A stretch of DNA of 57,713 nucleotides, from IMG/VR virus record IMGVR_UViG_3300027865_000010, positions 1 to 57,713 of that record, one strand, 5' to 3'. Below the pieces are notes generated by a model. The model searched no databases and was not told the origin of the DNA. It saw only the letters and a list, made by a program, of their open reading frames with translations. The stretch is from a virus. Numbering within the stretch: the stretch's first letter is position 1; the number at the start of each line of letters is the position of its first letter. Shown piece by piece: positions 17,221 to 32,427 of the stretch. A program made the position numbers and the translations under genes.

Positions 17221-17498
17221 ATAGGGGTAGATTTTGCCCCAGAAACCAGCAATCTCTCGGCTGTTGTGCGCGCAATCGCACGTTCATACGTGAGCATAAA
17301 CAAGGCAAGGCCTGTAAGCTCTGTGGCTTTGACGACTGGCGGGCGCTGTGTTATCATCACAGAGTCCCTGCTGAGAAGACGGCTAACGTCGAGCAGATGA
17401 CCAACAGGTCTTTCAGCCTGGCCATGCTTCAAGCTGAGGTCGATAAGTGTGATATCCTATGCATGAACTGCCACACTATCATGCACCATCCAGAATAG
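17211..17498 (+). CDS. HNH-type endonuclease, small
   Basis: The C-terminal half carries ACKLCGF...CYHHRVPAEK and DKCDILCMNCHTIMHH, a clear treble-clef HNH signature with zinc Cys and catalytic His. The start is uncertain: the only candidate is TTG 17211, overlapping the previous stop, and the first ~30 residues look degraded. Probably a free-standing homing endonuclease next to the tRNA-Met gene. Confidence 0.75.
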   Translation: MHVDRGRFCPRNQQSLGCCARNRTFIREHKQGKACKLCGFDDWRALCYHHRVPAEKTANVEQMTNRSFSLAMLQAEVDKCDILCMNCHTIMHHPE

Positions 17499-17508
17499 GA
17501 GTGAACGT

Positions 17509-17581
17509 AGCGCGGTAGAGCAGTTGGTAGCTCACGTGGCTCATAACCACGCAGTCGGCAGTTCGAGTCTGCCCCGCGCCA
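17509..17581 (+). tRNA. tRNA-Met (CAT)
   Basis: Full cloverleaf: D-arm GAGC/GCTC, anticodon stem CGTGG/CCACG with loop CTCATAA, T-loop TTCGAGT. Could also be a CAT-anticodon Ile tRNA needing lysidine. The first acceptor pair is A1 against C72, a mismatch; the other six pair. CCA not encoded. Confidence 0.92.
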
Positions 17582-20351: not shown

Positions 20352-21110
20352 ATGCCCACAAAGTTGAGTCAGATTGTCGCCGTAACGAACGGCAAGAAGA
20401 AACGCACCCAGGCGAAGATCACCGAGGTGTACCACAGGATCCAGAAGGACACCCTGTTCTCAGGCATCACCCGCGAGTACAGGCCCATCGATGACGAGGG
20501 CGTAGATCTTCCGCCGGAGTCCCGTGGCGTGCAGATGCAGGTCGCACATGCGGTCAAGCAGGTGGCGGATGCCATGACAGACCTGTTTGACACGGTCGCC
20601 ACACAAGACTATAACAACTGCACTGCGACGGCCCATGTTGTCGTCAACGGCAAGGTCATCCTGCGCGACGTTCCGGTTACCAATCTGCTCTTCCTGGACA
20701 AGCAGTTGGAAGACATCCGGACGTTCATCTCGAAGCTACCGCTTCTGCCGCCGGAGAAGGAGTGGGTATGGAGCACCGAGCACGGCTGCTTCAAGTCGAA
20801 GACGGAGGAGACAAGCAAAACCAAGCGCGTCCCGAAGGCGCACGTATTGTCCGAGGCTACGGAGCATCATCCGGCCCAGGTCAACGAGTTCCACGAGGAC
20901 GAGATCGTCGGTTGGTGGCACACCGTCCACCTGTCCGGCGCAATGCAGGCGCAGAAGCGCAGTGAAATGGTCGAGCGGGTGACGAAGCTGCACGACGCAG
21001 TCAAGTTCGCCCGACAGAAGGCCAACGAAATGGAAGTTACGTCGTACAAGGTCGGCAAGCCGATCTTCGACTTCATTTGCGAAGGAGCAACGCCACAGCC
21101 GGAAGGCTGA
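20352..21110 (+). CDS. Conserved actinophage-type protein (DUF7873-like)
   Basis: 252 residues beginning MPTKLSQIVAVTNGKKKRTQ, with LPPESRGVQ, an NLLFLDKQLEDIRTFISKLP block and IVGWWHTVHLSGAM near the end. From memory this is a widespread family in actinobacteria and their phages (I believe DUF7873), function unknown. ATG 20352 after AGGAGGGCCACA. It gives the clearest host hint in the window. Confidence 0.85.
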   Translation: MPTKLSQIVAVTNGKKKRTQAKITEVYHRIQKDTLFSGITREYRPIDDEGVDLPPESRGVQMQVAHAVKQVADAMTDLFDTVATQDYNNCTATAHVVVNGKVILRDVPVTNLLFLDKQLEDIRTFISKLPLLPPEKEWVWSTEHGCFKSKTEETSKTKRVPKAHVLSEATEHHPAQVNEFHEDEIVGWWHTVHLSGAMQAQKRSEMVERVTKLHDAVKFARQKANEMEVTSYKVGKPIFDFICEGATPQPEG

Positions 21111-21142
21111 TGGCTTTTCGAAGCTTAGACTGAGATTGAGGC

Positions 21143-21158
21143 TAAGAGGCGCATGCCT
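21143..21158 (+). repeat. 16-base repeat TAAGAGGCGCATGCCT, copy 2
   Basis: Identical to 690-705. Here it overlaps the putative 3' half of a permuted tRNA. Coincidence of a shared control element with tRNA sequence must be considered. Confidence 0.55.
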
Positions 21159-21266
21159 TTGAGCCTGGGTTCGAGTCCCAGGGCCGGTGACTAACATACT
21201 CCCTGACGTTCCATGAGGATGTCAGGTCACAATCACACCGGCTAGCCCAGTGGTCGAGGCAAGGCA
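21154..21266 (+). ncRNA. Possible circularly permuted tRNA (3' half before 5' half)
   Basis: 3' half: TGCCT at 21154-21158, a canonical T-arm CTGGG-TTCGAGT-CCCAG and acceptor GGCCGGT ending 21188. After 48 bases comes a 5' half: ACCGGCT at 21237-21243 (7 bp with GGCCGGT; 8 if C21236-G21189 is counted), D-arm GCC...GGC, then AGGCA at 21262-21266, which pairs with TGCCT as a 5-bp anticodon stem. The linker itself folds (CCTGAC/GTCAGG). Anticodon not determinable. No permuted tRNA is known to me in a phage, so confidence is limited. Confidence 0.4.
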
Positions 21267-21357
21267 TTGCCCATCAGACCCAGATTCTCGCTCCAAGCTG
21301 ACAACCCCGATACAGTCAGCCACATCATCAAGCGCCGTGCCATGACAACACATGGAT

Positions 21358-21440
21358 GGGAGTTCGATTCTCTCCCCCGGGCACTCGCTAACCAACCCAC
21401 AAGCCCGGGTCGTATAACGGTAATACAATCTGTTTGACAG
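21358..21440 (+). ncRNA. Second possible permuted tRNA
   Basis: T-arm GGGAG-TTCGATT-CTCTC and acceptor CCCGGGC (21376-21382), a 20-base linker, then GCCCGGG (21403-21409), canonical T8 and D-arm GTAT-AACGGTA-ATAC (21412-21426), then an anticodon-like AATCTGTTTGACAGACT. The acceptor halves pair perfectly only in this inverted order. The join in the anticodon/variable region is unresolved. Confidence 0.35.
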
Positions 21441-21537
21441 ACTAAAACCACGGCTTAAACGGATACAGGATGTGGCACGCATCAGTGCTAGTATCGAAAC
21501 CAGTCCGCTCCACTAGGTTAGCGTGGGGCGGACTCCA

Positions 21538-21610
21538 GTCCCTTAATCGTCCAATGGGCAGGACACCGGGCGGACACCCGGAGACGCCGGTTCGAACCCG
21601 GCAGGGGCAC
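21538..21610 (+). tRNA. Degenerate tRNA-like sequence
   Basis: Good D-arm (GTCCAATGGGCAGGAC) and T-arm (GCCGG-TTCGAAC-CCGGC), but the acceptor ends pair poorly and the anticodon region CCGGG-CGGACA-CCCGG has no T33 and an abnormal loop. Decayed tRNA or a part of a split/permuted gene. No amino acid assigned. Confidence 0.4.
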
Positions 21611-21647
21611 TTATCGGTGACCTTTGACTAAACGAGAAGGCATGGAG

Positions 21648-21679
21648 GTCTGTAACGGGTTCGAATCCCGGCCAAGCGC
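21648..21679 (+). other. Isolated T-arm-like 3' tRNA fragment
   Basis: ACGGG-TTCGAAT-CCCG followed by GCCAAGCGCC, with no matching D-arm upstream. The end pairs with the following GGCGCTT as a hairpin (AAGCGCC-ACC-GGCGCTT). Remnant tRNA or part of the next structured transcript's upstream terminator. Confidence 0.35.
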
Positions 21680-21709
21680 CACCGGCGCTTGTGCAAGCCG
21701 AACCGATTT

Positions 21710-21738
21710 TTGAGACACTACTCCCTCTACAGTATATA
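21710..21738 (+). promoter_or_regulatory. Sigma-70-type promoter for the structured RNA
   Basis: -35 TTGAGA (21710-21715), 17-base spacer, -10 TATATA (21733-21738). Transcription would start near 21745, at the base of a 10-bp hairpin. Confidence 0.65.
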
Positions 21739-21740
21739 CG

Positions 21741-22178
21741 AGCATACGTGTTCTTGCCAAAACACGTATGCTCCACTCTTTCGTACGTAAAGTGTCGTGT
21801 CTACTGGCAAGTGAGCTCAAGCGAACAGAACTCGTCCCTATCGCCGACGGTAGCGGGACTATGTTCGCGAGCGGCTTAAAAACGGATGTAAGGGCTCTGC
21901 GACAGTCGGCGCAACCCGAAGCATCTGTGCTTGGAGAGAGGGCCTTTCTGAGGACCCCGAGGGCCAAGCCGACGCTTCTTTCTACAGACGCTGGCCGAAA
22001 GGCAATCCGACAGGAATCACGCATAGTAGGGGAAGGCCAGTCCGATCCGAACCCGTTGATTCAGTCCGGTTCTGAACACCTATGGGGCAACATCGTCGGC
22101 TGGCCGTGTGTCGAAAGTGTTCATGGATGCCCAGAGGGTTAGTACAGCCCAGGGCGCGCATCCAAGCAGCGCCTTTTT
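21741..22178 (+). ncRNA. Large structured non-coding RNA (~430 nt)
   Basis: No convincing protein frame. It starts with a perfect hairpin AGCATACGTG/CACGTATGCT (21741-21772), then GCGAACA (21821) pairing TGTTCGC (21862) enclosing GTCCC/GGGAC and TATCG/CGGTA, then a three-way junction closed by GTCGGC (21905)/GCCGAC (21968) with hairpin AAGCA-TCTG-TGCTT, further stems CTGGCC/GGCCAG and GGATGC/GCATCC, and a terminator. Size, tRNA neighbourhood and ornate folding recall GOLLD or ROOL RNAs of phages, but I cannot match either consensus by eye. Confidence 0.6.
22153..22178 (+). terminator. Intrinsic terminator of the structured RNA
   Basis: Stem GGCGC/GCGCC (22153-22157/22169-22173) followed by TTTTT. 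Confidence 0.75.
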
Positions 22179-22208
22179 CTACAACCCAGAGAGGACCGAA
22201 GACTTCTG

Positions 22209-22412
22209 ATGCCATGTAAGTGTGGCCAGCCTACTGGCCCGTACGGCGACCTTTGTGAAGATTGCTGGGTCGCACGACAAACCTTCCGGAGCGTTGGTCC
22301 TACTCGGCGACCAGCACGACGGAATCGTCGCGCAATTTCGCGCCCACGCGGCACTGTGTCGCGCGGACCGCAGCCTGCAGCCGTTGAGGCCTTTGAGGCC
22401 CTGTTCAGCTAG
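22209..22412 (+). CDS. Small zinc-binding protein
   Basis: 67 residues. MPCKCGQPTGPYGDLCEDCW is a compact zinc ribbon of a kind common in actinophage small proteins; the rest is Arg/Pro-rich. A second plausible coding stretch follows in another frame (to 22573), so the original gene may have been longer and frameshifted. Confidence 0.6.
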   Translation: MPCKCGQPTGPYGDLCEDCWVARQTFRSVGPTRRPARRNRRAISRPRGTVSRGPQPAAVEAFEALFS

Positions 22413-22417
22413 TAGCG

Positions 22418-22573
22418 CACTACCACGCCACGCCTCTGAAGATCCTTGGCGTCGACGACAACGTCTTCGACACGCTCAAGGAGATGGTGCCAAGCATCGC
22501 AGCTCGGCTCCTGGACCCGCTGACAGGTGTCCGCGGCAACGGTCAAGACGTTGCGGAGACGACGCGAGTCTAG
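22418..22573 (+). pseudogene. Protein-like frame without a start
   Basis: The frame ending TAG 22571-22573 reads LKILGVDDNVFDTLKEMVPS... and looks genuinely coding, but has no start codon between the upstream stop and the helical part. Likely the 3' end of a broken gene, perhaps the frameshifted continuation of the 22209 gene or the remains of another. Confidence 0.4.
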
Positions 22574-22580
22574 CTGAACC

Positions 22581-22596
22581 TTGTTCAGCTGAACAA
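22581..22596. promoter_or_regulatory. Perfect palindrome TTGTTCAGCTGAACAA (site 2 of 6)
   Basis: Sixteen-base perfect inverted repeat after the broken frame and before the GC hairpin upstream of tRNA-Pro. Best example of the TTGTTC-N4-GAACAA family. Confidence 0.65.
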
Positions 22597-22628
22597 AATC
22601 AACGAAACTACGACCATTCGTGGTTTGG

Positions 22629-22664
22629 CCCGGGGCTCCTTCCTACCGAAGGGGAGCCCCGGGT
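22629..22664 (+). terminator. Strong GC hairpin before tRNA-Pro
   Basis: Eleven-base-pair stem CCCGGGGCTCC / GGAGCCCCGGG with a ~12-base loop, followed by TATTTCT. A terminator or tRNA-processing hairpin. Confidence 0.6.
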
Positions 22665-22670
22665 ATTTCT

Positions 22671-22744
22671 CGGGCATTGGGGAAGCCTGGTATCCCGCCT
22701 GCTCTGGGAGCAGGAAGGCGCTGGTTCAAATCCAGCATGCCCGA
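22671..22744 (+). tRNA. tRNA-Pro (TGG) with C33
   Basis: Acceptor CGGGCAT/ATGCCCG, D-arm GGGAAGCCTGGTATCCC, anticodon stem CCTGC/GCAGG with loop TCTGGGA, T-loop TTCAAAT. Position 33, nearly always U, is C here. Confidence 0.9.
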
Positions 22745-22774
22745 CTTTACAATCACTACAAAAAGGAGAGACAC

Positions 22775-23080
22775 ATGGCAAACTGGATCGCCCTTGAGGG
22801 TGACACACTGACTGATCTCAATGGCTTCGATCTGATCACTATCGACGCGTACGATACGGCAAACAAGGCGCCGCATGATGTAGACAACATGCCGCCTGGC
22901 CTGTCGGTTAATGACCCAGATCTGTGGATCATCCGCGCCTGGTTCCGCAGCGTAGACGATTGCCAAATCATTTTGGCGGCAGGCTCGGAGGCCTACTGCA
23001 AGCGGGTACATGCAGCAATTATCTACTCACTAAACGCACAAACCCTCACTGAGGTGCTCGAAAACGCCGGCAAAGCCTAA
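22775..23080 (+). CDS. Hypothetical protein (101 aa)
   Basis: ATG after AAAAGGAGAGACAC. Begins ANWIALEGDTLTDLNGFD, like an immunity- or scaffold-type small alpha/beta protein, but I cannot name a family. Its neighbour is a decayed gene. Confidence 0.75.
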   Translation: MANWIALEGDTLTDLNGFDLITIDAYDTANKAPHDVDNMPPGLSVNDPDLWIIRAWFRSVDDCQIILAAGSEAYCKRVHAAIIYSLNAQTLTEVLENAGKA

Positions 23081-23094
23081 CCTGCGAGGAAAGC

Positions 23095-23226
23095 ATGCAG
23101 ATCATCAGCGACTTCAAGGACTACTACGACGTAATCGCGTCGGCGGGGCAGGATCTGACGTTGAGGCCAAGGGCTTCGACCCGAAGTGGAGTTTCCGGAA
23201 GCCGCCCACCAAACACAGATGACTAA
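23095..23226 (+). pseudogene. Internally deleted phage gene (MQIISDFKDYYD family)
   Basis: The start MQIISDFKDYYDVIASAGQD matches a phage family I recall as ~200 residues long. After 20 codons the frame turns to nonsense, while another frame gives VEAKGFDPKWSFRKPP and a stop at 23222, the expected C-terminus of that family. The centre has been deleted and the join is out of frame. Confidence 0.6.
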
Positions 23227-23392
23227 CCATATTGGTGCTGCTATTCAGTGGGTGCTGTGCCGCCTGGGTTTTCACGAATGGGTGAAGATCCTTGGATCAC
23301 TGCCACCCCGCCGCCGATGCCTATACTGTGCAGCTGCTCAGATGTGCCATGTTAATGGCTGGGAGAATGCGCCCCTACCCAAAGAGGAGTAA
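23219..23392 (+). CDS. Small protein with CxxC
   Basis: 57 residues from ATG 23219 inside the tail of the decayed gene: LCRLGFHEWVKILGSLPPRRRCLYC resembles small Cys/His zinc proteins of phages. Followed directly by the 23396 gene. Confidence 0.6.
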   Translation: MTNHIGAAIQWVLCRLGFHEWVKILGSLPPRRRCLYCAAAQMCHVNGWENAPLPKEE

Positions 23393-23395
23393 ACC

Positions 23396-23986
23396 ATGGA
23401 CGTAGTGATTGCTGACGGATTCTGGAAGGGCTTCAAGCGTATCTGCCGGCCATGGTATCACCCGGCAAACCTGTGGTACAGCTTCAAGTGCTGGGCATGG
23501 AAGCGCCACACCACGATCAAGCCACGGTACCTGTCGCACACCTGGCATGACCGCTGCGTCATCTTGCCACACATGATGTTCGAGATACTGTCGCAGTTCA
23601 TCGAAGGAGAGTGCGGCCCTGATGGCCACGTAGAGTGGTACGGCGAGAATGCGCACATGATCACTGTGGCCGGCGAAGAGAAGTACGTCCGCGACGAGAT
23701 GCAGGAGCTCTATGACTGGTGGCACAAGAAGTACAACAAGAGGTACGAGGAGCTCGCTGAGTACATCCACGAAGAACGAGAGAAGCTCGACCTGATTAGC
23801 CACTTTCAGGACATACCCGATAGGCCCGGGATATGCCAGTGGAAACCGACGTATGGCATACCCGAAGACGCGCAGCGCGCTAAGGAGCTGTCAGAGTGGT
23901 ACAGCTTCTATGACATAGCCGTGGAGAACTCGCTGAAGCGACACATGCACAGGCTTGTTGCCATTTACCGGTCCATGTGGACATGA
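23396..23986 (+). CDS. Conserved phage hypothetical protein
   Basis: 196 residues rich in Trp, His and Tyr: KPRYLSHTWHDRCVILPHMMFEILSQFIEGE is similar to a phage family I have met as unknown. AAAGAGGAGTAAACC precedes the ATG. The stop overlaps the start of the next gene. Confidence 0.8.
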   Translation: MDVVIADGFWKGFKRICRPWYHPANLWYSFKCWAWKRHTTIKPRYLSHTWHDRCVILPHMMFEILSQFIEGECGPDGHVEWYGENAHMITVAGEEKYVRDEMQELYDWWHKKYNKRYEELAEYIHEEREKLDLISHFQDIPDRPGICQWKPTYGIPEDAQRAKELSEWYSFYDIAVENSLKRHMHRLVAIYRSMWT

Positions 23987-24192
23987 TCTCGCTCAAAGCC
24001 ATTGACCTGAGCAAAGGCCATGACCACGAACATCCAGACATCAAACTCAGCGCGCCGTACCTGATTAAGTGGTGCAATCGCTGGTCTGCGGGCCACTTCA
24101 ACCGTGTGTCGCAGGCATCACCGCCTTTACGTAACCTAAGGAGAGTGAGGATTCGAGATGAGAGAGGAACTGGAGCAGCAACTGTTCACTAA
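23983..24192 (+). CDS. Small hypothetical with RRVRIR tail motif
   Basis: 69 residues from ATG 23983 overlapping the previous stop. The first half looks folded (LIKWCNRWSAGHFNRVSQ); near the end LRRVRIRDER repeats the tail motif found in six other proteins. The bases encoding it also supply the ribosome site of the next gene, so part of this resemblance could be coincidence. Overlaps the 24158 gene by 35 bases. Confidence 0.55.
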   Translation: MISLKAIDLSKGHDHEHPDIKLSAPYLIKWCNRWSAGHFNRVSQASPPLRNLRRVRIRDERGTGAATVH

Positions 24193-24586
24193 GTACCCGG
24201 GGCTCTTCCGCGACCGCCACGGCGATACGCAACAAACGCGTATGGTGGACGGAGTTGGTTGCGGCGACGGGTGGTACGACCTGCTCGACAAGCTGTGCGC
24301 CGACATTACGGCGCAGCCTAACAGCGAGGACGTCGCGATCTTCCAGATTAAGGAGAAGTTCGGCGGCCTGCGCTTCTACGTTGGCGCCGCTAGCTCAGCA
24401 GTCCACGATCTAATATCGGCGGCCGAGGCGCAAGCATACAAGGTTTGCGAGGTCTGCGGCAGTGCTGATGACGTCAAGGCATGCGGGCCGCGATGGCTTA
24501 AATCGCTTTGCCCTGCTTGCCGCAAGGTACGCATTGCCGAGGTCGAGGCCCACCATCAACGACAGCAGCAAGGAACCAGCACTTGA
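24158..24586 (+). CDS. Conserved zinc-binding phage protein
   Basis: 142 residues. GVGCGDGWYDLLDKLC, FQIKEKFGGLRFYVG and CEVCGS...LCPAC form a pattern I know from many phages, function unknown; the C-terminal Cys pairs suggest a zinc ribbon. AAGGAGAGTGAGGATTCGAG precedes ATG. Coupled to the next gene by a TTGA overlap. Confidence 0.8.
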   Translation: MREELEQQLFTKYPGLFRDRHGDTQQTRMVDGVGCGDGWYDLLDKLCADITAQPNSEDVAIFQIKEKFGGLRFYVGAASSAVHDLISAAEAQAYKVCEVCGSADDVKACGPRWLKSLCPACRKVRIAEVEAHHQRQQQGTST

Positions 24587-24867
24587 AATTGCTCTTTTGT
24601 GATGCCTGCGGCGACATTGTCAAGCTGCGAAGCGAGACACGGACATGTAGCTGCAAGAAAAGCGGCGGGCATTACACCAACCACCTTGATGCTGTCTACT
24701 GGGGGCCAGCAATGCCCCTCGGTGTCGACAACATGAGCTTCGCCACAGCGCTGCATGAGCGCCCAACCGAAGGCAAGGGTTTTCGCTTTGCGGCCTTTGT
24801 AATCCCGAAACGATGCCCTACAATGATACAGCTCGAAGGCCCGGACGGTACACCCGTGGCCATCTGA
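24583..24867 (+). CDS. Small conserved protein with zinc ribbon
   Basis: 94 residues from TTG 24583, supported by overlap with the previous stop and AAGGA upstream. LLFCDACGDIVKL...CSCKKSGGHY followed by GPAMPLGVDNMSFATALHERP and FVIPKRCPT is a small conserved family in phages and actinobacteria as I recall. Function unknown. Confidence 0.75.
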   Translation: MKLLFCDACGDIVKLRSETRTCSCKKSGGHYTNHLDAVYWGPAMPLGVDNMSFATALHERPTEGKGFRFAAFVIPKRCPTMIQLEGPDGTPVAI

Positions 24868-24899
24868 GAGCTGACTGCAGCGTAGAACCGGCAGAAGCC

Positions 24900-24973
24900 G
24901 GCTCGGTAGGCAACTGGCAGACCACCTTGGCTTAGAACCAGGGATGCTGTGAGTTCGAATCTCACCTGAGCCA
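24900..24973 (+). tRNA. tRNA-Leu (TAG), short variable arm
   Basis: Acceptor GGCTCGG/CTGAGCC, anticodon stem CTTGG/CCAGG, loop CTTAGAA, T-loop TTCGAAT, A73. The variable region is only GATGCT, whereas bacterial Leu tRNAs normally carry a long arm. Confidence 0.9.
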
Positions 24974-24980
24974 TTCAGCA

Positions 24981-25063
24981 GGGCGATGTTCCCGACGGCA
25001 GACTGTAAATCTGTTGGCATTATGTCGGGCGGTCACCAAGAGGTGCGACTCCTCCATTTCCCA
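24981..25063 (+). tRNA. tRNA-Tyr-like (GTA), D-arm disrupted
   Basis: Anticodon stem GCAGA/TCTGT with loop CTGTAAA and a long variable region fit Tyr. The acceptor pairs six of seven (GGGCGAT/ATTTCCC). The D-arm lacks about nine bases after CCCGACGG; instead CCCGAC (24991-24996) can pair with GTCGGG (25024-25029) in the variable region. T-loop is TGCGACT instead of TTCGACT. Possibly a pseudo-tRNA. Confidence 0.55.
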
Positions 25064-25066
25064 TTG

Positions 25067-25140
25067 GGGCCGATAGCCCAATTGGCAGAGGCGCTAGGTC
25101 GAGGGCCTAGCCAGTGCGGGTTCGACTCCTGTTCGGCCTA
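25067..25140 (+). tRNA. tRNA-Leu (GAG) with C33, short variable arm
   Basis: Acceptor GGGCCGA/TCGGCCT (G1-T72 wobble), anticodon stem CTAGG/CCTAG, loop TCGAGGG: position 33 is C. Variable region CCAGT. T-loop TTCGACT. Confidence 0.82.
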
Positions 25141-25145
25141 CTCGA

Positions 25146-25219
25146 TGCCCAGTAGGCAAGTGGCAGACCACCTGGACTTAAAATCCGGGATGCTGTGGGT
25201 TCGAATCCCACCTGGGCCA
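25146..25219 (+). tRNA. tRNA-Leu (TAA), short variable arm
   Basis: Anticodon stem CTGGA/TCCGG, loop CTTAAAA, variable GATGCT, T-loop TTCGAAT, A73. First acceptor pair T1 against C72 is a mismatch; the rest pair. Confidence 0.9.
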
Positions 25220-25223
25220 CTAC

Positions 25224-25298
25224 GGTCCGGTGCGTCCAATTGGCAGAGCGGCCCGGCTCAAAACCGGGCGGTTGTAGGTTCGAATCCTACCCGGACTA
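25224..25298 (+). tRNA. tRNA-Leu (CAA), short variable arm
   Basis: Acceptor GGTCCGG/CCGGACT, anticodon stem CCCGG/CCGGG, loop CTCAAAA, variable CGGTT, T-loop TTCGAAT, A73. Confidence 0.9.
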
Positions 25299-25415
25299 TT
25301 GGGAATCCAGATCACGGGGCCGCTTGGGCTGGACGATGGCGTTGAGGAGCGGCGGTGTGTACCAGAGAGGGCTGAGAGCGCCACTTACCTACTTGAATGA
25401 CTAAAGGAGATGCTC
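25299..25415. other. Leader of the Clp N-domain gene
   Basis: No gene seen. Ends with a clear ribosome site AAAGGAG at 25403-25409, six bases before ATG 25416. Confidence 0.4.
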
Positions 25416-26129
25416 ATGTACGAGCGGTTCACAGATGATGCGAGGAGGTTGTTCCAGCGGGCCAACAAAGAGGCGCAGCGGTTCAATCACGAATACATCG
25501 GCACCGAGCACATCCTGCTTGGGCTGGTCAAAGGGGACGGCGAGGTCGCAGTCAACATACTGAAGAACCTCGACGTCGATCCGCGGAAAGTCCGGCTCGA
25601 GGTAGAGAAGCTTATGCATAGCGGGCCCGACATGGGCACCGTGGGCAAGCTACCGCAAACGCCCAGGGCTAAAAGGGTCATCGAGTACGCGCAAGGGGAG
25701 GCCCGAGTTACCGAGTTCAACTACGTGAGCACCGAGCAGGTCCTGATCGGCCTGCTGCGCGAGCAGGAAGGCGTCGCGGCCCAGGTGCTGACGGGCCTCG
25801 GGGTAACGCTCGAAGCCGTGCGTGCGCAGGTAGCAGTTGCACCCGATACGGATACGCCCAAGACTTGGGACGCAGAGCGCGGCGCGCTGCTTGCCCATCA
25901 GGCGGCAACAGATGCGCGTATTCGCGCGATGACGGCCCAGTTCAATCGGCTGCTGGAGCTCGTAAAGATCCCGAATCCCGCACGAGACATCGCCAATGAG
26001 GCCAATGAGCTGCTTGCAGCCAAGGATCGCAGGATCGAACAGCTGGAGCGACAGCTGGAGCAGCAGCTGGCGGAGCAGGAGCAAGCTTGGGCCGCGGCGC
26101 ACCAATCTGCCGGGGAGGCCGATGAATGA
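25416..26129 (+). CDS. Stand-alone Clp N-domain (ClpC-like) protein
   Basis: 237 residues. Two Clp repeats: MYERFTDDARRLFQRANKEA...YIGTEHILLGLVKG and RVIEYAQGEA...YVSTEQVLIGLLREQEG, as in ClpC N-domains. No AAA+ ATPase part follows, only a coiled coil (LERQLEQQLAEQEQ). In ClpC this domain binds adaptors, phospho-arginine and substrates, so a solo copy could compete for or redirect host Clp protease partners. ATG 25416 fits the ribosome site better than ATG 25410. Confidence 0.88.
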   Translation: MYERFTDDARRLFQRANKEAQRFNHEYIGTEHILLGLVKGDGEVAVNILKNLDVDPRKVRLEVEKLMHSGPDMGTVGKLPQTPRAKRVIEYAQGEARVTEFNYVSTEQVLIGLLREQEGVAAQVLTGLGVTLEAVRAQVAVAPDTDTPKTWDAERGALLAHQAATDARIRAMTAQFNRLLELVKIPNPARDIANEANELLAAKDRRIEQLERQLEQQLAEQEQAWAAAHQSAGEADE

Positions 26130-26371
26130 CACGCATCTGGAACAAGCGGACGCCGCTATGGATGCGGATCTGGGTCTGGTGGCAGTTCTTGCGGCAGCCC
26201 AAAGACGAGTTCAACTGGCGGTACAATTTGGATCCCGTCGTAATGGCGCACATGTGCAGGTGCGAGTGTGGTCGATACACGGCTGAACTGCTCAGGCGGC
26301 GGCGACGCGCGCACAACGACGATATTGAGCGCCAGGCCAAGGAGATGGACAAGCAATGCTTTTCGCCATAA
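26126..26371 (+). CDS. Small Trp/Arg-rich protein with CxCxC
   Basis: 81 residues, ATGA overlap with the Clp N-domain gene. Trp-rich N-terminus (LWMRIWVWWQF) and central HMCRCECGRY cysteine set, then an Arg-rich helix. Unknown function; translated as part of the 25416-27138 operon. Confidence 0.65.
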   Translation: MTRIWNKRTPLWMRIWVWWQFLRQPKDEFNWRYNLDPVVMAHMCRCECGRYTAELLRRRRRAHNDDIERQAKEMDKQCFSP

Positions 26372-26691
26372 AGCAGGCAATCGCTAACCGTCGTCGCCGC
26401 GAAGCGCTAGTCAAGCAAACCTGCGAGGTTGCACGGCTTACCGCTGCTCTCGAGACCTTGCGTGCCAACTACGAGGCAGACAACCGCAAGCATCAGAGCC
26501 AGATCACAGCGCTACAGGCGTTGTATCGACGGGAACGTGCCGCCCACCTCAGGGACATGTTTGATGACCCTACGCCGGAGACCGCGGCGAACGTCCGGAG
26601 AGAAACAGAGCAACGGCTGAACGTAGCCATGCTCACCCTTCCAGAGCTAAAAAAGGAGAGCGACCGTGGCATTGCAGCAGACGAAAGCTGA
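26356..26691 (+). CDS. Small coiled-coil protein
   Basis: 111 residues; hydrophobic start (MLFAIKQAIANRRR) then a long amphipathic helix. Overlaps both neighbours by short stretches. No family recognised. Confidence 0.65.
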   Translation: MLFAIKQAIANRRRREALVKQTCEVARLTAALETLRANYEADNRKHQSQITALQALYRRERAAHLRDMFDDPTPETAANVRRETEQRLNVAMLTLPELKKESDRGIAADES

Positions 26692-26899
26692 CAAGGAGAA
26701 GGCCAGGAAGGCCTACAAGCACGAGTGGAAGCGCAGAAACAGGGGCCTGGGCCCGGGCGGCAACGCTACGCCTGGTAGCGTCAAGGTGGCGTCCTGCCAG
26801 GCGAGCAGCTTGGACAGGTACATGGCCAACAGAAACCGGAGCTACAAGCACCCCGGGTACGAAGCGTGGCGACTTGGCCACAGTACGGAGATGCGATGA
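26666..26899 (+). CDS. Small basic protein
   Basis: 77 residues from GTG 26666, supported by AAAAAAGGAGAGCGACC. Lys/Arg-rich with Gly/Asn, likely nucleic-acid binding. Overlaps the next gene by four bases. Confidence 0.65.
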   Translation: MALQQTKADKEKARKAYKHEWKRRNRGLGPGGNATPGSVKVASCQASSLDRYMANRNRSYKHPGYEAWRLGHSTEMR

Positions 26900-27138
26900 A
26901 CAGCGTATGGACAGACCGCGCCATTACGGCGCTAGTCGGCTTCGCTGGCGGCGTCATCGGTATCCTGGTGGTACTGGTGTTATCGCTGCTGTGCGGGTTC
27001 GTCGGCTGGGTGAACCCGAATACCGAAGAGAGTTTTATCCAGTGCGTTGCTTACGGAGCGGCTGGATGGGCCGTAGTCCTTTCGGGTGTTATCGGCACAG
27101 CGCTGGCAATCTTCAAGTTGCCCAACGGGCCTGTATGA
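26896..27138 (+). CDS. Small membrane protein, two helices
   Basis: 80 residues with two clear membrane helices (VGFAGGVIGILVVLVLSLLCG and AAGWAVVLSGVIGTALAIF). Last gene of the operon that begins with the Clp N-domain protein; tRNA-Gln follows eight bases later. Confidence 0.7.
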   Translation: MNSVWTDRAITALVGFAGGVIGILVVLVLSLLCGFVGWVNPNTEESFIQCVAYGAAGWAVVLSGVIGTALAIFKLPNGPV

Positions 27139-27145
27139 ACAACGG

Positions 27146-27218
27146 TACCCGGTAGCTCAATTGGCAGAGCGCAGGGTTTTGGTCCCTGAGGTTCCAAGTT
27201 CAAGTCTTGGCCGGGTTG
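27146..27218 (+). tRNA. tRNA-Gln (TTG)
   Basis: Anticodon stem CAGGG/CCCTG, loop TTTTGGT; D-arm GCTCAATTGGCAGAGC; T-loop TTCAAGT. First acceptor pair T1 against T72 is a mismatch. Confidence 0.9.
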
Positions 27219-27219
27219 T

Positions 27220-27291
27220 GGGCTATGAGTGTGATGGATCGCACGGCAGATTACGGATCTGCAAGAAGGGGTTCGACTCCTCTATGGCTCG
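27220..27291 (+). tRNA. tRNA-Arg (ACG)
   Basis: Acceptor GGGCTAT/ATGGCTC, D-arm GTGTGATGGATCGCAC, anticodon stem GCAGA/TCTGC, loop TTACGGA, T-loop TTCGACT. One base separates it from tRNA-Gln. A34 would need inosine editing by the host deaminase. Confidence 0.88.
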
Positions 27292-27311
27292 CTTAATTTC
27301 TTGCTCTTTTC

Positions 27312-27335
27312 TTCGTACCCTAAACATGCTATGCT
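27312..27335 (+). promoter_or_regulatory. Extended -10 promoter candidate
   Basis: AAACATGCTATGCTTGGGG ahead of the HNH gene; TG-C-TATGCT looks like an extended -10. Nearly the same string (AAACATGCTATGGTTAG) lies near 19745. No good -35 seen. Confidence 0.4.
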
Positions 27336-27353
27336 TGGGGTAAGGAGCAAAGT

Positions 27354-27941
27354 ATGCAAGAACAGATACTAGCGCTGCGCGCAAAGGGGTGGTCCTATAA
27401 CCGCATCACCGCAGAGCTCGGATGCTCTAAAGGCACAGTTGCATATCATTGCGGCAAGGGACAGAAAGCCAAAGCGCAGCGCCGCCAGCAGCATTACCGC
27501 CGTAATGACGTCCTGCTCAAGAAGTGCGACAACTTCAAGAACCGACCCGCAAAGCGTCAGCATGTACCCGAAGCCAAAACAACTGACAGCCAACGCCTGC
27601 ATAACAAGCGTAGGGACTTTCAACGTAAACGTGTCAACGGTAATCGCTACGGTAAGCGCGGCAGCTATACGCTCACAGCAGCCACTGTTCGTGAAAAATA
27701 CGGGGAGACGACTACCTGTTATTTGACCGGACGCCCTATCGACCTGTCGCAACCAAAAACGTACCATTTTGACCACATCGTACCGCGAGCGGATGGCGGT
27801 AGCTGTGAGGCAGATAATCTCGGTATCGCTTGCAGCGCAGCAAACAAGGCCAAAGCAGACATGTCTGTCGACGCATTCTTGCAGCTGTGTAAAGAAGTGC
27901 TAGAGCACCACGGCTATGTCGTGGATGAAAAGGTGCGGTAG
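27354..27941 (+). CDS. HNH homing-type endonuclease with N-terminal HTH
   Basis: 195 residues. The N-terminus (ILALRAKGWSYNRITAELGCSKGTVAYH) is a helix-turn-helix for DNA recognition; the C-terminus has CYLTGRPIDL...YHFDHIVPRADGG...NLGIACSAANKAK, the HNH core. A free-standing homing endonuclease whose 3' end overlaps the tRNA-Phe gene by ten bases, suggesting insertion next to or into the tRNA array. Confidence 0.9.
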   Translation: MQEQILALRAKGWSYNRITAELGCSKGTVAYHCGKGQKAKAQRRQQHYRRNDVLLKKCDNFKNRPAKRQHVPEAKTTDSQRLHNKRRDFQRKRVNGNRYGKRGSYTLTAATVREKYGETTTCYLTGRPIDLSQPKTYHFDHIVPRADGGSCEADNLGIACSAANKAKADMSVDAFLQLCKEVLEHHGYVVDEKVR

Positions 27942-28004
27942 CTCAGCAGGTAGAGCACTGGATTGAAAATCCAGGTGTCGGCGGTTCAACTCCACCCCGT
28001 ACCA
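27932..28004 (+). tRNA. tRNA-Phe (GAA)
   Basis: Acceptor GGTGCGG/CCGTACC, anticodon stem CTGGA/TCCAG, loop TTGAAAA, T-loop TTCAACT with one C-A mismatch in the T-stem. Its first ten bases are also the end of the HNH gene. Confidence 0.9.
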
Positions 28005-28013
28005 CTCTAGGAT

Positions 28014-28086
28014 AGGCGAGTAGCTCAGCTGGCAGAGCTTCCGGCTTACATCCGGACGGTCGTGGGTTCAAGTCCCTCCTCGCCTA
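28014..28086 (+). tRNA. tRNA-Val (TAC)
   Basis: Acceptor AGGCGAG/CTCGCCT, anticodon stem TCCGG/CCGGA, loop CTTACAT, T-loop TTCAAGT with one T-T mismatch in the T-stem. Confidence 0.92.
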
Positions 28087-28087
28087 C

Positions 28088-28208
28088 TGGCGTGCGAAGC
28101 AACCATAGGCGTCGTTCATCCGTGACGCCAACAACGGATGCCGAGAACTTCGCACGCCAACAAAAGGCGTGTCGGTCGGGTTCGAGATTACTCACTGATC
28201 GACACGCC
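28088..28208 (+). ncRNA. Structured spacer RNA: pseudoknot plus 12-bp hairpin
   Basis: A 12-bp stem TGGCGTGCGAAG (28088-28099)/CTTCGCACGCCA (28148-28159) encloses an H-type pseudoknot: GGCGTC (28108)/GACGCC (28124) and loop ATCCGT (28118) with ACGGAT (28134). Next, a second 12-bp stem GGCGTGTCGGTC (28166)/GATCGACACGCC (28197) closes a 19-base loop with TTCGA. It fills the gap between tRNA-Val and tRNA-Ser. No known family recognised. Confidence 0.6.
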
Positions 28209-28211
28209 GAC

Positions 28212-28296
28212 GGAACGGTGGCCGAGTCTGGCTAAAGGCCCTTGTCTTGAAAACAAGTTGACGAAAGTCACGTAGGTTCAAATCCTACCCGTTCCG
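28212..28296 (+). tRNA. tRNA-Ser (TGA)
   Basis: Acceptor GGAACGG/CCGTTCC, D-arm GGCCGAGTCTGGCTAAAGGCC, anticodon stem CTTGT/ACAAG, loop CTTGAAA, proper long variable arm (TTGACGAAAGTCAC), T-loop TTCAAAT. Shows that class II arms are kept for Ser in this genome. Confidence 0.93.
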
Positions 28297-28357
28297 CTCG
28301 AATAAAGCTCTTGCGTCGCGTCAAGCTGCAACAGGAACTCAGTGACAAGGAGAAAGA

Positions 28358-28762
28358 ATGAGCAAGGTTCTAATGACCGGCACGGATATTGCGGCGCTGC
28401 TCACGCTCTCTATCAAGTCAGACACGGCGCTAAAAGCAATCGCCGTGGCGGAGGAGTGGATAGAGGCCGCAGAAGAAGAGATCAGTACGCTGCGTGCCAC
28501 ATTTCCGTTCAAGACCGCGGACAAACATGTCATCTCCAGCCTACCGTACAAGTTCTGGACGATAGAGACCGGCCGGGTTGTCGAGCGCTGTGCGCACGCG
28601 ATTACCGAGCACGGTCTTAGAATAACCGTGGAACGGTATGCCGGACTGCGGCATGAGTTGGTATGCTTCCGCGACGTGTTCAGTACATCGGCGGCTGTTG
28701 TGGCAGAGCTCGAGATACGGAAGCAGGCCTGGACCGAGTACCCCGCAAAGGTTACTGTGTAA
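28358..28762 (+). CDS. Hypothetical protein (134 aa)
   Basis: ATG after AAGGAGAAAGA. Helical, acidic in the middle, no motif I recognise. Sits between tRNA-Ser and the HNH fragment. Confidence 0.72.
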   Translation: MSKVLMTGTDIAALLTLSIKSDTALKAIAVAEEWIEAAEEEISTLRATFPFKTADKHVISSLPYKFWTIETGRVVERCAHAITEHGLRITVERYAGLRHELVCFRDVFSTSAAVVAELEIRKQAWTEYPAKVTV

Positions 28763-28769
28763 TGAGTGT

Positions 28770-28800
28770 GCGGGTGTAGTGTAGACGGCAATGCATGCTG
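28770..28800 (+). other. Orphan 5' half of a tRNA
   Basis: Acceptor-like GCGGGTG, T8, D-arm GTGT-AGACGGCA-ATGC with A14, G18, G19 and A21 all present, then TGCTG. No matching 3' half (CACCCGC) is nearby. The HNH frame starts inside it, so the tRNA was probably interrupted or replaced by the nuclease gene. Confidence 0.45.
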
Positions 28801-29001
28801 TGCAGACGGAAGCAATGGCAGGGCAAGCCTATACCGCTCGTATTGGACCATATCGACGGGCGTGCAAACAATTCGTCACTCAGCAACTTACGACTAATCT
28901 GTAACAACTGCGACGCGTTGCTGCCAACCTATAAAGGCAGGAATCGCGGCAATGGGCGGCACAGCCGCCGTCAGCGGTACGCTGCTGGCAAAAGTTACTA
29001 G
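28795..29001 (+). CDS. Small HNH endonuclease
   Basis: 68 residues: MLCRRKQWQGKPIPLVLDHIDGRANNSSLSNLR then LICNNCDALLPTYKG, a clear HNH core. The family normally starts with a CxxC; here the first Cys (CMLC) lies one codon upstream of the ATG, behind a stop codon, so the N-terminus is clipped. Ends exactly at the first base of tRNA-Thr. Likely a homing endonuclease that invaded the tRNA array. Confidence 0.8.
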   Translation: MLCRRKQWQGKPIPLVLDHIDGRANNSSLSNLRLICNNCDALLPTYKGRNRGNGRHSRRQRYAAGKSY

Positions 29002-29073
29002 CCGCCGAGCCCGACTTAGTGAGGGAGTCGATTTGTAATTGACCAGTAGATGGTGCAAATCCATCCGGCGGCC
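29001..29073 (+). tRNA. tRNA-Thr (TGT)
   Basis: Acceptor GCCGCCG/CGGCGGC, anticodon stem GTCGA/TTGAC, loop TTTGTAA. T-loop is TGCAAAT, lacking the usual T55, and the discriminator is C rather than A. Both are odd for Thr. Confidence 0.8.
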
Positions 29074-29225
29074 CTGTCTCTTGTGTCAAGCTTTGGCGTT
29101 CGCTATGACCACAAGCAGGAACCCGCTCCTCGCTAATATACGCGCTATGTCCAAACCAGCGCGATAGGGGCTATGGCTCTGTGGCTGCGGGAGAGCGCCA
29201 TTTCACACACACAAAGGAAATCGTG
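29074..29225. other. Leader region after tRNA-Thr
   Basis: No gene supported. TTGTGT (about 29088), a 17-base gap and TATGAC form a possible promoter; an AT-rich CTAATATACG follows. ACAAAGGAAATCGTG gives the ribosome site for the 29226 gene. Confidence 0.35.
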
Positions 29226-29453
29226 ATGCCAAGAAGCATGGTTTGGGGCTGGGCCTGCATAGTGGCCTGCTTCGTCGACTCGATATGGGCTAACTGTCAT
29301 TTGCTGGATCTGTTTGAAGGCGGCGAAGAGGCGCCCCGGCAGCCACGACGCGTCCGCCTCAAGGATGAGAAGGGGCCATCCACGGTTCCTGTGGACACAC
29401 CCAGCACGGACGCGACAGTGGACACATACGTTGAACCGGAGATACCGTTTTGA
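29226..29453 (+). CDS. Small membrane-anchored protein with RRVRLK motif
   Basis: 75 residues. N-terminal hydrophobic segment (MVWGWACIVACFVDSIW) that could be a membrane anchor or signal, then QPRRVRLKDE (residues 39-48) and a Pro/Thr/Glu-rich tail. The basic motif is the same tail motif as in other small proteins here, though internal in this one. Confidence 0.65.
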   Translation: MPRSMVWGWACIVACFVDSIWANCHLLDLFEGGEEAPRQPRRVRLKDEKGPSTVPVDTPSTDATVDTYVEPEIPF

Positions 29454-29491
29454 GACGACTCGTCAGACACCAAAAACCACGGAGAAAACCG

Positions 29492-29617
29492 ATGAGTGAT
29501 CCTGTTGATACCGGTTGTTGCGTCATGGTCATCATTGCCGGCGGGCTTGTTGTCGGGCTGTGCTCCGGCATCATCGCCGTGCTTTTTGCCTCGGCTTGGA
29601 ACCTCATAGCCGGCTAA
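29492..29617 (+). CDS. Small membrane protein (41 aa)
   Basis: ATG 29492 after ACGGAGAAAACCG. A single long membrane helix (CVMVIIAGGLVVGLCSGIIA and on). It ends one base from the convergent terminase stop. Could be a holin-like or accessory envelope protein; not determinable. Confidence 0.6.
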   Translation: MSDPVDTGCCVMVIIAGGLVVGLCSGIIAVLFASAWNLIAG

Positions 29618-31498
29618 CTACTGAATGAGCTCGTCGTCCCATTCGGAGTCAGACAGCGGCACAGATGCGCGTAGCTGCTCATCAGAGATCGCAGCAATCT
29701 CGTGCAGCCGTGGCCATTTCTTGGTGCGGTACCAGATACCGACGCAGCCCAGGTTCACAGCCTGTGCAAAGTCGTCGGTGAAGCCTGCCTGCCGGTCAAT
29801 ACGGTAGATCTCGCCAGCAGCCATCGTGGTCACCTTGTCTTCGACGAGCGCCAGGAAGTCACGGATCAGTCCGGGGTCTTCCTGGCTGCTGTAGTCGGAG
29901 TCAAAGAACCGCAGCTGCTTACACTTGATCATTGCGCATGTCAGCAATAACGAGCGGCTCTTGTCCACGCGGTAGTGCGAGCGCGGATGATCTACTGTTG
30001 GAGCCACATGGTAGCACGGCTGCTGCTTGGCCGAGCGTACGTACATACATGGCATTACGCAGCGGCTAGGTACGCCGGACTGAATCAGGAACGTCTCACG
30101 AAGTGAGCCGGCACCCGTGTAGTCATGGCAGATCATGGTCGGGCGGAAGGCGTCCCAGTACTGCTTGATCTCGCGCGCCTCGCGTAGATGGTCATGCGGC
30201 GTGAGTAGCCGCTTGCCCCACAACACGTCGATCTTGCCGTCGTGTTTGACGCCAAGTAGTGCCACTGTCGTGAAGCTCAGCTTCTTCTCGCCACCGCCAC
30301 CCCAGTCTACACCCAGCACGCGCATCTGGTACTTACCACACTTGCCTTTGGCCACTGAGAAGTCGTTGGGGCCTAGGTTCGACACTGCTTCGATTTCCGT
30401 CAGCGTGACGATCTTGGCAGCTGTATCGTACGATTCGCCCAACACTTCGTTATAGAAAACATTCAGCGGCGTGTTACCTTTACCGGCCATCTTGGCCAGC
30501 AGCTCGGCCCACTTGTCTGGCTTCGCGTAGTGCAGCGGCATGATAATCTGCGGCACGTGATAGCCAGCTGACCCCCACACGCGTTTTGGGTAGCGGTGCA
30601 CCCAGCGCCCCATCCGCGGCGATATCGGCTTACCGCACTTGAAGCAGATCGTCGCGGGGTGTTCCTCGCTGATCCCGCTGTGGTACGGTCCGATGATCTT
30701 CTCAAGATGGAACTCCATAGTCGGGATGTTCCATGTTGGGCTGCCATGCGTGGTGCAGTGCATACACGGGATAAACCACTCTGCCTGCGATGACTCTGTC
30801 CACAGCGCCTCGAGCGTATTGTCCAGCGTCTTGGGTGTGCCAGTGAACTGCCGTAGCGCCCACTTGGAGGCCGACATCGTCTCACGGATGATCGGCAGGT
30901 GCTCGCGATTCATATCCTGGACTTCATCAATGGCGACCTTGTCTGCGGAAATACCGCGGACACGATCCGCATTGAGGAAGGCGAAGGAGAAGAGCATCTT
31001 CGAGCGGTTGCGGAAGCTACGATGCAGTACGCTGTTCACCGTGTCGGTTCCGGACCACAGATGCCGTACCGGGCTCTGGTCAATGAACGGTGCCACGAAC
31101 ATTGAGCTGAAGCGGCGCACTTGCTCGAACAGCGGCATCACATACAGCGTAGTAAGATCTGGGATGGATATCGACGTGGCGATGCCGTGCGCGGCTAGTG
31201 ACGTCGACTTGGAGACCTGGCGTCCGGTCTTGTATGTCAGCGATGACGGCATGCGGAACCTGAAAATCTCTTCGAACGGGAAGTGATTTATCAGCGAATA
31301 TGGCTCACCTTTGAGGTTCAGCAGCAGCGGCAATGCCTGCGCCAGCGTATCCATGCGCCCGCTCTCCATCATGGAGGTGAGGCCGGCTATGCGGTCGCCA
31401 GCAGACACGTCATCTGCGTCTTTTGCCGCGAGAAGTGGCCGTATTTGCTGGTGCGCTTGCTCTAGCGCATGCGGTTCGTCGAAGAGCAGCTGGTCCAT
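29618..31498 (-). CDS. terL: Terminase large subunit
   Basis: 626 residues. ATPase part: Walker A-like TGRQVSKST (91-99), Walker B VAIDEVQD (188-195), coupling motif TGTPKT (219-224). Nuclease part: GVDWG (396-400) with catalytic Asp398, HDYTGAGS (Asp459) and a final DDFAQAVN. Two Cys pairs (245/248, 285/288) between the domains suggest a zinc insert. It packages DNA into proheads. It is one of few minus-strand genes here and stands apart from portal or capsid genes; no small subunit is identified nearby. Confidence 0.93.
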   Translation of the reverse strand: MDQLLFDEPHALEQAHQQIRPLLAAKDADDVSAGDRIAGLTSMMESGRMDTLAQALPLLLNLKGEPYSLINHFPFEEIFRFRMPSSLTYKTGRQVSKSTSLAAHGIATSISIPDLTTLYVMPLFEQVRRFSSMFVAPFIDQSPVRHLWSGTDTVNSVLHRSFRNRSKMLFSFAFLNADRVRGISADKVAIDEVQDMNREHLPIIRETMSASKWALRQFTGTPKTLDNTLEALWTESSQAEWFIPCMHCTTHGSPTWNIPTMEFHLEKIIGPYHSGISEEHPATICFKCGKPISPRMGRWVHRYPKRVWGSAGYHVPQIIMPLHYAKPDKWAELLAKMAGKGNTPLNVFYNEVLGESYDTAAKIVTLTEIEAVSNLGPNDFSVAKGKCGKYQMRVLGVDWGGGGEKKLSFTTVALLGVKHDGKIDVLWGKRLLTPHDHLREAREIKQYWDAFRPTMICHDYTGAGSLRETFLIQSGVPSRCVMPCMYVRSAKQQPCYHVAPTVDHPRSHYRVDKSRSLLLTCAMIKCKQLRFFDSDYSSQEDPGLIRDFLALVEDKVTTMAAGEIYRIDRQAGFTDDFAQAVNLGCVGIWYRTKKWPRLHEIAAISDEQLRASVPLSDSEWDDELIQ

Positions 31499-31561
31499 GT
31501 TGACCCCGTGTTCGTCCTGACTTTACGACAAATCATCACCATCTGCCCCGCTAGGCTAATC

Positions 31562-31591
31562 TTGATGGTGATCCGCTATCTGTGATATGAT
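31562..31591 (+). promoter_or_regulatory. Promoter with extended -10 and operator-like half-site
   Basis: -35 TTGATG (31562-31567), 18-base spacer, TGA-TATGAT (-10 at 31586-31591). The -10 runs into ATGATAGCAC, half of the palindrome found at 39982 and 55960, suggesting regulated transcription of the 31643-38812 genes. Confidence 0.65.
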
Positions 31592-31642
31592 AGCACTGGC
31601 TTACTGAAATGTGAAGCCTCATACTCTCGGCCTGGAGCCGCT

Positions 31643-31879
31643 ATGGCAGTAACCAGAAATGCGCGGTTGTTCTTGGAGAGGGCAGGACTGCGGCCGACGT
31701 TCCGTCGCCCAGTACCGACCATGGTCCCCGGTGATAGTCTGATGCATGCGTATCCGTTGGATCGGCCATTGCCGCTCCCGGGCACGCTACGCGATGGCTT
31801 CCCGGCACCTGACCGTCCCTCTACTGGCGTCGATGAAGGTGACGTGAACGACCCGTGGCACATTGGACCGGAAGACTAA
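31643..31879 (+). CDS. Pro/Arg-rich small protein
   Basis: 78 residues, Arg/Pro-rich (GLRPTFRRPVPTMVPGD), probably disordered or forming an extended tail. First gene after the promoter at 31562. Unknown function. Confidence 0.65.
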   Translation: MAVTRNARLFLERAGLRPTFRRPVPTMVPGDSLMHAYPLDRPLPLPGTLRDGFPAPDRPSTGVDEGDVNDPWHIGPED

Positions 31880-31880
31880 C

Positions 31881-32039
31881 GTGTTCAAGAGCTGGCTAAC
31901 TACCGCCATCCTATTTGGAGCGGTTGGCATCGGCTGTGCGAGCCTCTGTGAGGGGCTCCCGGCCTTGATACCGCTTGTTTGTATGGGTGGTGCAATCTAC
32001 GTGGCGTACTGCGTCATGAAGGGTTTCACAACGCAGTGA
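31881..32039 (+). CDS. Small membrane protein (52 aa)
   Basis: GTG 31881 one base after the previous stop. Two membrane segments (LTTAILFGAVGIGCASL and LIPLVCMGGAIYVAYCVM). No family recognised. Confidence 0.6.
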   Translation: MFKSWLTTAILFGAVGIGCASLCEGLPALIPLVCMGGAIYVAYCVMKGFTTQ

Positions 32040-32067
32040 AACACACACCATGATAGGATAAGTAGCT

Positions 32068-32403: not shown

Positions 32404-32409
32404 TCAATT

Positions 32410-32425: not shown

Positions 32426-32427
32426 GT

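What the first reader, a model, noticed from the sequence alone, without database searches (positions are those of the whole stretch)
21710..22178. Large structured non-coding RNA with own promoter and terminator
About 430 nt with no credible protein, a good promoter (TTGAGA-N17-TATATA), a 10-bp first hairpin at the start site, a three-way junction, several further stems and a U-tract terminator. It sits among tRNAs, as GOLLD and ROOL RNAs do, but I cannot match either. It may be a new class of phage ornate RNA.
Basis: seen in the sequence. Interest (0 to 1): 0.85.

Follow-up and report, generated by a model that had tools for sequence, protein, structure and literature searches.

The report
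Phage tRNA cluster with tRNA-shaped RNAs

Summary
Window: 57.7-kb IMG/VR phage record. It is not shown to be one ~430-nt RNA. A sister contig (L025) is 100% identical from 22158 onward, but upstream it keeps only a 12-nt island and a diverged 3' module (21986-22173, several helices re-formed). In between it has an ordinary tRNA-Ala. Promoter hexamers and terminator hairpin are not conserved. Rfam finds nothing (no GOLLD, ROOL or OLE).

The strong result is 170-600 nt upstream. Window 21118-21535 holds two RNAs with a circularly permuted tRNA layout (3' half before 5' half), directly behind DUF7873 (20352-21110). The unit recurs in most DUF7873 loci examined: isolated Gordonia, Rhodococcus, Arthrobacter, Rhizobium, Vibrio and cyanobacterial phages, and 70 of 80 bacterial loci. 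With halves chosen blind to the acceptor, 30 of 32 acceptors pair 7/7 (cross-phage control 4%). The topology matches bacterial Y RNA (YrlA): basal stem plus tRNA-like head. But scores stay below Rfam's YrlA cut-off, and Ro60 is absent from most genomes checked. Best reading: a DUF7873-linked, often Ro60-less, Y-RNA-like RNP. Function is inferred, untested.

The parts
20352..21110 (+). DUF7873 protein gene (252 aa), partner gene of the two permuted-tRNA RNAs
   Evidence: Pfam PF25283 E 1.7e-94; family also in 73 phage records and >=556 bacterial stretches; AlphaFold model pLDDT 92, no fold match
21118..21300 (+). RNA T1 with flanks: permuted tRNA-like RNA, 3' half (AC stem TGCCT 21154-21158, T arm 21165-21181, acceptor GCCGGTG 21183-21189) before 5' half (acceptor CACCGGC 21236-21242, D arm 21245-21260, AC stem AGGCA)
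   Evidence: acceptor 7/7 Watson-Crick, AC stem 5/5; YrlA model places a weak match here, 21151-21270, 11.8 bits
21305..21535 (+). RNA T2 with flanks: second permuted tRNA-like RNA; acceptors CCCGGGC 21376-21382 / GCCCGGG 21403-21409, T arm 21358-21374, D arm 21412-21426; basal stem Px GCCGTG 21334-21339 / CACGGC 21449-21454, conserved TTAAACGG 21455-21462, Py CCACATC 21320-21326 / GATGTGG 21469-21475; end hairpin 21502-21534
   Evidence: anticodon stem weak in this copy (two G-U)
21536..21612 (+). ordinary-order tRNA gene (weak, odd anticodon loop)
   Evidence: Rfam tRNA 32.8 bits, E 1.4e-4
21613..21707 (+). RNA module D, about 95 nt, closing helix ATCGGT/ACCGAT
   Evidence: homologue L008 13978-14083, E 4e-9 for the BLAST match, helices re-formed with different bases; two sequences only
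   Evidence: in the sequence; not kept in sister L025, which instead keeps ACACTACTCCCT (w 21715-21726)
21740..21773 (+). 13-bp perfect hairpin
   Evidence: 0/300 shuffles; not in sister L025
21774..21985 (+). structured central stretch, no homologue found; sister L025 has tRNA-Ala in this interval
21986..22173 (+). RNA module E2: P1 GACGCTG/CAGCGCC, P2 GCC-GAAA-GGC, P4 GAACAC/GTGTTC, P5 GGATGC/GCATCC, then U5 (22174-22178)
   Evidence: diverged homologue L025 341-539 keeps P1, P2, P5 and re-forms P4 with other bases; model R1 finds it only in these two records

Best explanation
The marked stretch is the downstream end of a phage tRNA cluster, built of several small structured RNAs that recombination swaps between close relatives. 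Only its 3' ~190 nt (module E2) is supported as an RNA unit by a diverged homologue. The conserved system in this cluster is the unit upstream: DUF7873 followed by two RNAs (T1, T2), each with an L-shaped tRNA head (acceptor, T and D arms) encoded in permuted order, whose anticodon arm is replaced by a long stem formed by the RNA's own 5' and 3' flanks. Proposed mechanism (inferred): like bacterial Y RNAs, the tRNA-shaped head recruits or occupies a tRNA-handling enzyme (a tRNA-modification enzyme, RNase P, PNPase or an anticodon nuclease) while the basal stem with its conserved UUAAACG // AUCGA internal loop is held by a protein, most likely DUF7873. The RNP would act as tether or decoy in tRNA protection or RNA turnover. 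Shown: permuted layout, covarying helices, conserved loop motif, linkage to DUF7873. Inferred: protein binding, partner enzyme, benefit.
For: Mosaic: L025 identity break at 22158, tRNA-Ala inside, islands only. T1/T2: a permuted-tRNA detector finds 85 hits in DUF7873 loci, nearly all within about 300 nt behind the gene, against 1 in 573 kb of shuffled sequence. Choosing halves without acceptor information, 30/32 loci pair 7/7 versus 4.3% across phages. Helix covariation on 39 T2 sequences: 98% paired versus 55.7% shuffled, score 1.07 versus 0.22, and it collapses when slid by one column. TTAAACG-type motif in 92/105 T2 flanks versus 1/105 shuffled; basal helix Px in 60/77 versus 14% control. 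70/80 bacterial DUF7873 loci carry at least one. Y-RNA likeness: topology as described for YrlA (PMC8394870); YrlA model hits GodonK T2 at 38.2 bits, E 3.7e-8, equal to the Ro60-linked RNAs of Rhizobium phage TM21B at 36-37 bits, and those Ro60-linked RNAs trip the same detector.
Against: All YrlA scores are below Rfam's 69-bit cut-off. The YrlA model also rings weakly on ordinary tRNAs. No RNA-seq or binding data. DUF7873 has no fold relative, so its role as binder is a guess from linkage. In the window copy the T2 anticodon stem is weak. E2 and D rest on two sequences each, and the E2 alignment is uncertain inside.
Confidence: 0.72

Rival explanations
1. One reading: 21740-22178 is one large stand-alone RNA, and L025 carries a recombined or damaged version with a tRNA gene inserted.
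For: Fold z of -3.76 over the whole stretch; 13-bp hairpin; shared islands at both ends in L025.
Against: No homologue of the central part anywhere searched; promoter and terminator hairpin not kept; MFE helices across the whole stretch cannot form in L025.
Confidence: 0.13
2. T1 and T2 are true circularly permuted tRNA genes that are spliced into decoding tRNAs, as in red algae and Thermofilum, with DUF7873 as endonuclease or ligase.
For: Perfect acceptor, T and D arms; CCA often encoded right after the 3' half with 3-4 nt before the 5' half; DUF7873 always adjacent.
Against: The anticodon loop is replaced by 12-17 nt and 5-10 nt linkers without a regular U33-anticodon pattern in T2 (read by eye); a conserved stem beyond the linkers would be waste if it were an intron; Ro60-linked Y RNAs show the same layout.
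Confidence: 0.15
3. T1/T2 act like a two-headed, two-piece tmRNA: RNase P and end trimming free charged CCA ends and the flanks encode a tag.
For: Permuted tmRNAs have the same order of pieces (general knowledge); T1 flanks show a six-base periodic pattern (R-R-R Y-T-N) and some end in stops (by eye); GodonK has a separate ordinary tmRNA.
Against: No tmRNA model hit at T1/T2; no conserved resume motif or pseudoknots recognised.
Confidence: 0.05

Closest known systems
Bacterial Y RNA YrlA (Rfam RF02553) with Ro60/Rsr
   Same: Basal stem of 5' and 3' ends plus a head imitating acceptor, D and T arms of tRNA; Ro60-linked copies in Rhizobium phage TM21B have the same permuted layout and the same model score.
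   Different: Linked to DUF7873 instead of Ro60; Ro60 (PF05731) absent from 14 of 22 records searched, among them complete phages GodonK, Mimi, NiceHouse, Pam2; usually two RNAs in tandem; conserved UUAAACG // AUCGA internal loop; below the YrlA cut-off.
Circularly permuted tRNA genes of algae and archaea (PMC3978253)
   Same: 3' half precedes 5' half, acceptor stem formed across the junction.
   Different: There 34 genes were listed, only in algae and archaea, with BHB splice motifs and real anticodons; here no BHB motif was identified and no clear anticodon.
GOLLD and ROOL large ornate RNAs
   Same: Structured RNA in a phage tRNA cluster.
   Different: No Rfam match at any threshold tried; the marked stretch is not one conserved unit.

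Membership tests
GOLLD / ROOL / OLE / HEARO | match to the family's covariance model | tested here: not met
   no hit in 21100-22800 at E<=5 except tRNAs and chance matches
YrlA Y RNA (applied to T1/T2) | tRNA-like head with acceptor, T and D arms in permuted order | tested here: met
YrlA Y RNA (applied to T1/T2) | basal stem made of the RNA's 5' and 3' ends | tested here: met
   Px helix 60/77 versus 14% control; Px and Py read in window, L004, L013
YrlA Y RNA (applied to T1/T2) | score above Rfam gathering cut-off | tested here: not met
   best 38.2 of 69 bits
YrlA Y RNA (applied to T1/T2) | a Ro60/Rsr (TROVE) protein encoded in the genome | tested here: not met
   absent in 14 of 22 records, some of them fragments
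YrlA Y RNA (applied to T1/T2) | physical binding of Ro60 and PNPase | not testable with these tools
   needs pull-down or structure
circularly permuted tRNA gene | junction processed by a BHB splice motif into a decoding tRNA | tested here: inconclusive
   no regular anticodon loop seen in the linkers (by eye); processing not testable
tmRNA | match to tmRNA models | tested here: not met
   no tmRNA hit at T1/T2 in Rfam or ARAGORN runs

The most novel reading that the evidence does not exclude
DUF7873 plus two tandem permuted-tRNA RNAs is a previously undescribed, widespread ribonucleoprotein of phages and bacteria: a Ro60-independent Y-RNA system with its own binding protein of unknown fold.
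Probability: 0.6. Interest if true: 0.85.

Novelty: new variant of a known kind. Interest (0 to 1): 0.72.

Why it matters
If right, bacterial Y RNAs are far more widespread than Ro60, many annotated phages carry an unannotated gap of ~400-530 nt behind DUF7873 that is really a pair of tRNA mimics, and DUF7873 gets a testable role. It offers a route to why phages keep tRNA-shaped RNAs next to their tRNA sets: protecting, baiting or repairing tRNAs in conflict with host nucleases. It also warns that a long, well-folding stretch in a tRNA cluster need not be a single RNA.

Tried and rejected
(1) Rfam at gathering and loose thresholds for the marked stretch: only tRNAs. (2) DNA similarity of the stretch against phages and relatives: nothing beyond 14-mers; gapped local alignments were at shuffle level. 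(3) 'Module D is a permuted tRNA/tmRNA acceptor piece': rejected, because the L008 homologue has no T arm there. (4) Degenerate patterns for D and E2 in IMG/VR: the only new hits (L037, L040, L232) were coding sequence, i.e. chance. (5) Group I intron halves around T1/T2: a memory-based resemblance of 'CAGACUAAA' only; flanks too short, no Rfam hit. (6) DUF7873 by PADLOC, NCBIfam, PHROGs, PDB sequence and fold searches: nothing significant. (7) Neighbours of bacterial DUF7873: no recurrent family; RtcB once, in Nonomuraea. (8) Literature search: no paper on DUF7873, none found on permuted tRNAs in phages; the key Y-RNA paper (PMC4201824) was not held, so novelty is not proven.

Full report
What the window is. 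The record is a 57.7-kb IMG/VR virus contig with a GpA-type terminase, an NAD ligase and a tRNA cluster at about 17.5-28.3 kb. Relatives at roughly 45-50% protein identity keep the gene order: L004/L011, L006/L012, L008/L013, L026/L123.

Checking the observation. The stretch folds better than its shuffles, the hairpin is beyond chance and no overlapping frame has this phage's codon usage. So 'structured and non-coding' is right.

Why it is not one RNA. Contig L025 is identical to the window at every base of 22158-28773 and 29537-32747, yet diverges abruptly upstream of 22158. There it shares ACACTACTCCCT, then carries an ordinary tRNA-Ala, then a diverged copy of the 3' module. In that module P1 (GACGCTG or GGCGCTG with CAGCGCC), P2 and P5 are kept and P4 is rebuilt (GAACAC/GTGTTC versus GATCACC/GGTGATT). 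The promoter hexamers are missing too. A model of the module finds only these two records. A second module just upstream (21613-21707) has a homologue in L008 with re-formed helices. The parsimonious picture is a string of small RNAs shuffled by recombination. With two sequences per module, covariation is suggestive, not proof.

What lies upstream. Reading the L008 and L004 counterparts showed tRNA 3' halves sitting before their own 5' halves. In the window, GCCGGTG (21183) pairs with CACCGGC (21236) and CCCGGGC (21376) with GCCCGGG (21403). L004 and L008/L013 have the same pair with different but complementary acceptors. An automatic search found the layout again right behind DUF7873 in Gordonia phage GodonK, then in most of 80 DUF7873 loci from IMG/VR, in Phendrix, NiceHouse, Mimi, Pam2, and single copies in Rhizobium TM21B and Vibrio D472, and in 70 of 80 bacterial loci from actinobacteria, planctomycetes, spirochaetes, delta-proteobacteria and others. 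In the annotated actinobacterial and Rhizobium phage records the place is an unannotated gap of about 410-530 nt.

Is it real? The detector selects for complementarity, so a blind test was made: halves located by D-arm and T-loop patterns only. 30 of 32 acceptors then pair at 7 of 7, against 4.3% between phages. On 39 anchored T2 sequences 16 of 17 pairs have double changes and sliding the partner by one base destroys the signal; those sequences were detector-selected, so this count is descriptive. Outside the tRNA head, T2 has a conserved basal helix and the motif UUAAACG in 92 of 105 flanks. T1 has its own, different flank motif, unexplained.

What it most likely is. The topology, a stem of the RNA's own ends carrying a head with acceptor, D and T arms, is how YrlA, the bacterial Y RNA, is described (PMC8394870). 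Rfam's YrlA model scores GodonK T2 at 38.2 bits and the Ro60-adjacent RNAs of Rhizobium phage TM21B at 36-37 bits, all below its 69-bit cut-off. Those Ro60-adjacent RNAs also show the permuted layout. Ro60 is absent in 14 of 22 records; several are fragments or drafts, but GodonK, Mimi, NiceHouse and Pam2 are deposited as complete genomes. I therefore do not file T1/T2 as YrlA, but say they work like it: a DUF7873-linked variant, usually in tandem and often without Ro60. Jumbo phages are known to carry TROVE proteins with a tRNA-like partner (PMC7824862), and YrlA's head has been proposed to compete with an anticodon nuclease (PMC7790460), which fits a phage tRNA cluster. DUF7873 as the stem-binding protein is inference from strict adjacency; its predicted fold matches nothing solved.

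Limits. No expression data. The open literature held here has no DUF7873 paper and lacks the main Y-RNA papers, so 'undescribed' is a judgement, not a proof.

Noticed in passing
L006 17276-17359 (+), IMGVR_UViG_3300025133_006513: Free-standing phage copy of the 23S rRNA L1-stalk region (Rfam LSU model positions 2129-2212, 58 bits), followed by a T-rich end, in the tRNA/terminase interval of a relative: looks like a ribosomal L1 decoy.
   Followed up: partly
L024 7381-7909 (GodonK): Phage-encoded tmRNA (90 bits), overlapped in the deposited record by a tRNA-His annotation, about 2 kb upstream of DUF7873.
   Followed up: no
window 28774-29536: 763 bp present in the window but absent from the otherwise identical sister contig L025/L014.
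   Followed up: no
L004 17454-17571: A complete tRNA-Thr gene (17483-17557) sits between the 3' and 5' halves of the permuted T1 RNA.
   Followed up: partly
L004 about 20770-22766 and L011; NiceHouse L128 2871-3720: Band-7 / possibly vault-like protein gene close downstream of the RNA pair in two phages (L004 by eye; NiceHouse annotated band-7-like); worth testing as a partner.
   Followed up: no
T1 flanks in many DUF7873 loci: Six-base periodic pattern (RRR YTN repeated) on both sides of T1, readable as alternating basic/hydrophobic codons; may be coding or a repeated protein-binding site.
   Followed up: no
L008 14247-14311: tRNA-like element with perfect acceptor and T arm but no D or anticodon arm, directly after the module D homologue.
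   Followed up: no
L134 1090-2241 (Nonomuraea): RtcB RNA ligase gene next to DUF7873, in theme with RNA repair but seen once.
   Followed up: no
L006 1775-2604: Group I intron inside the AAA ATPase gene of a relative.
   Followed up: no
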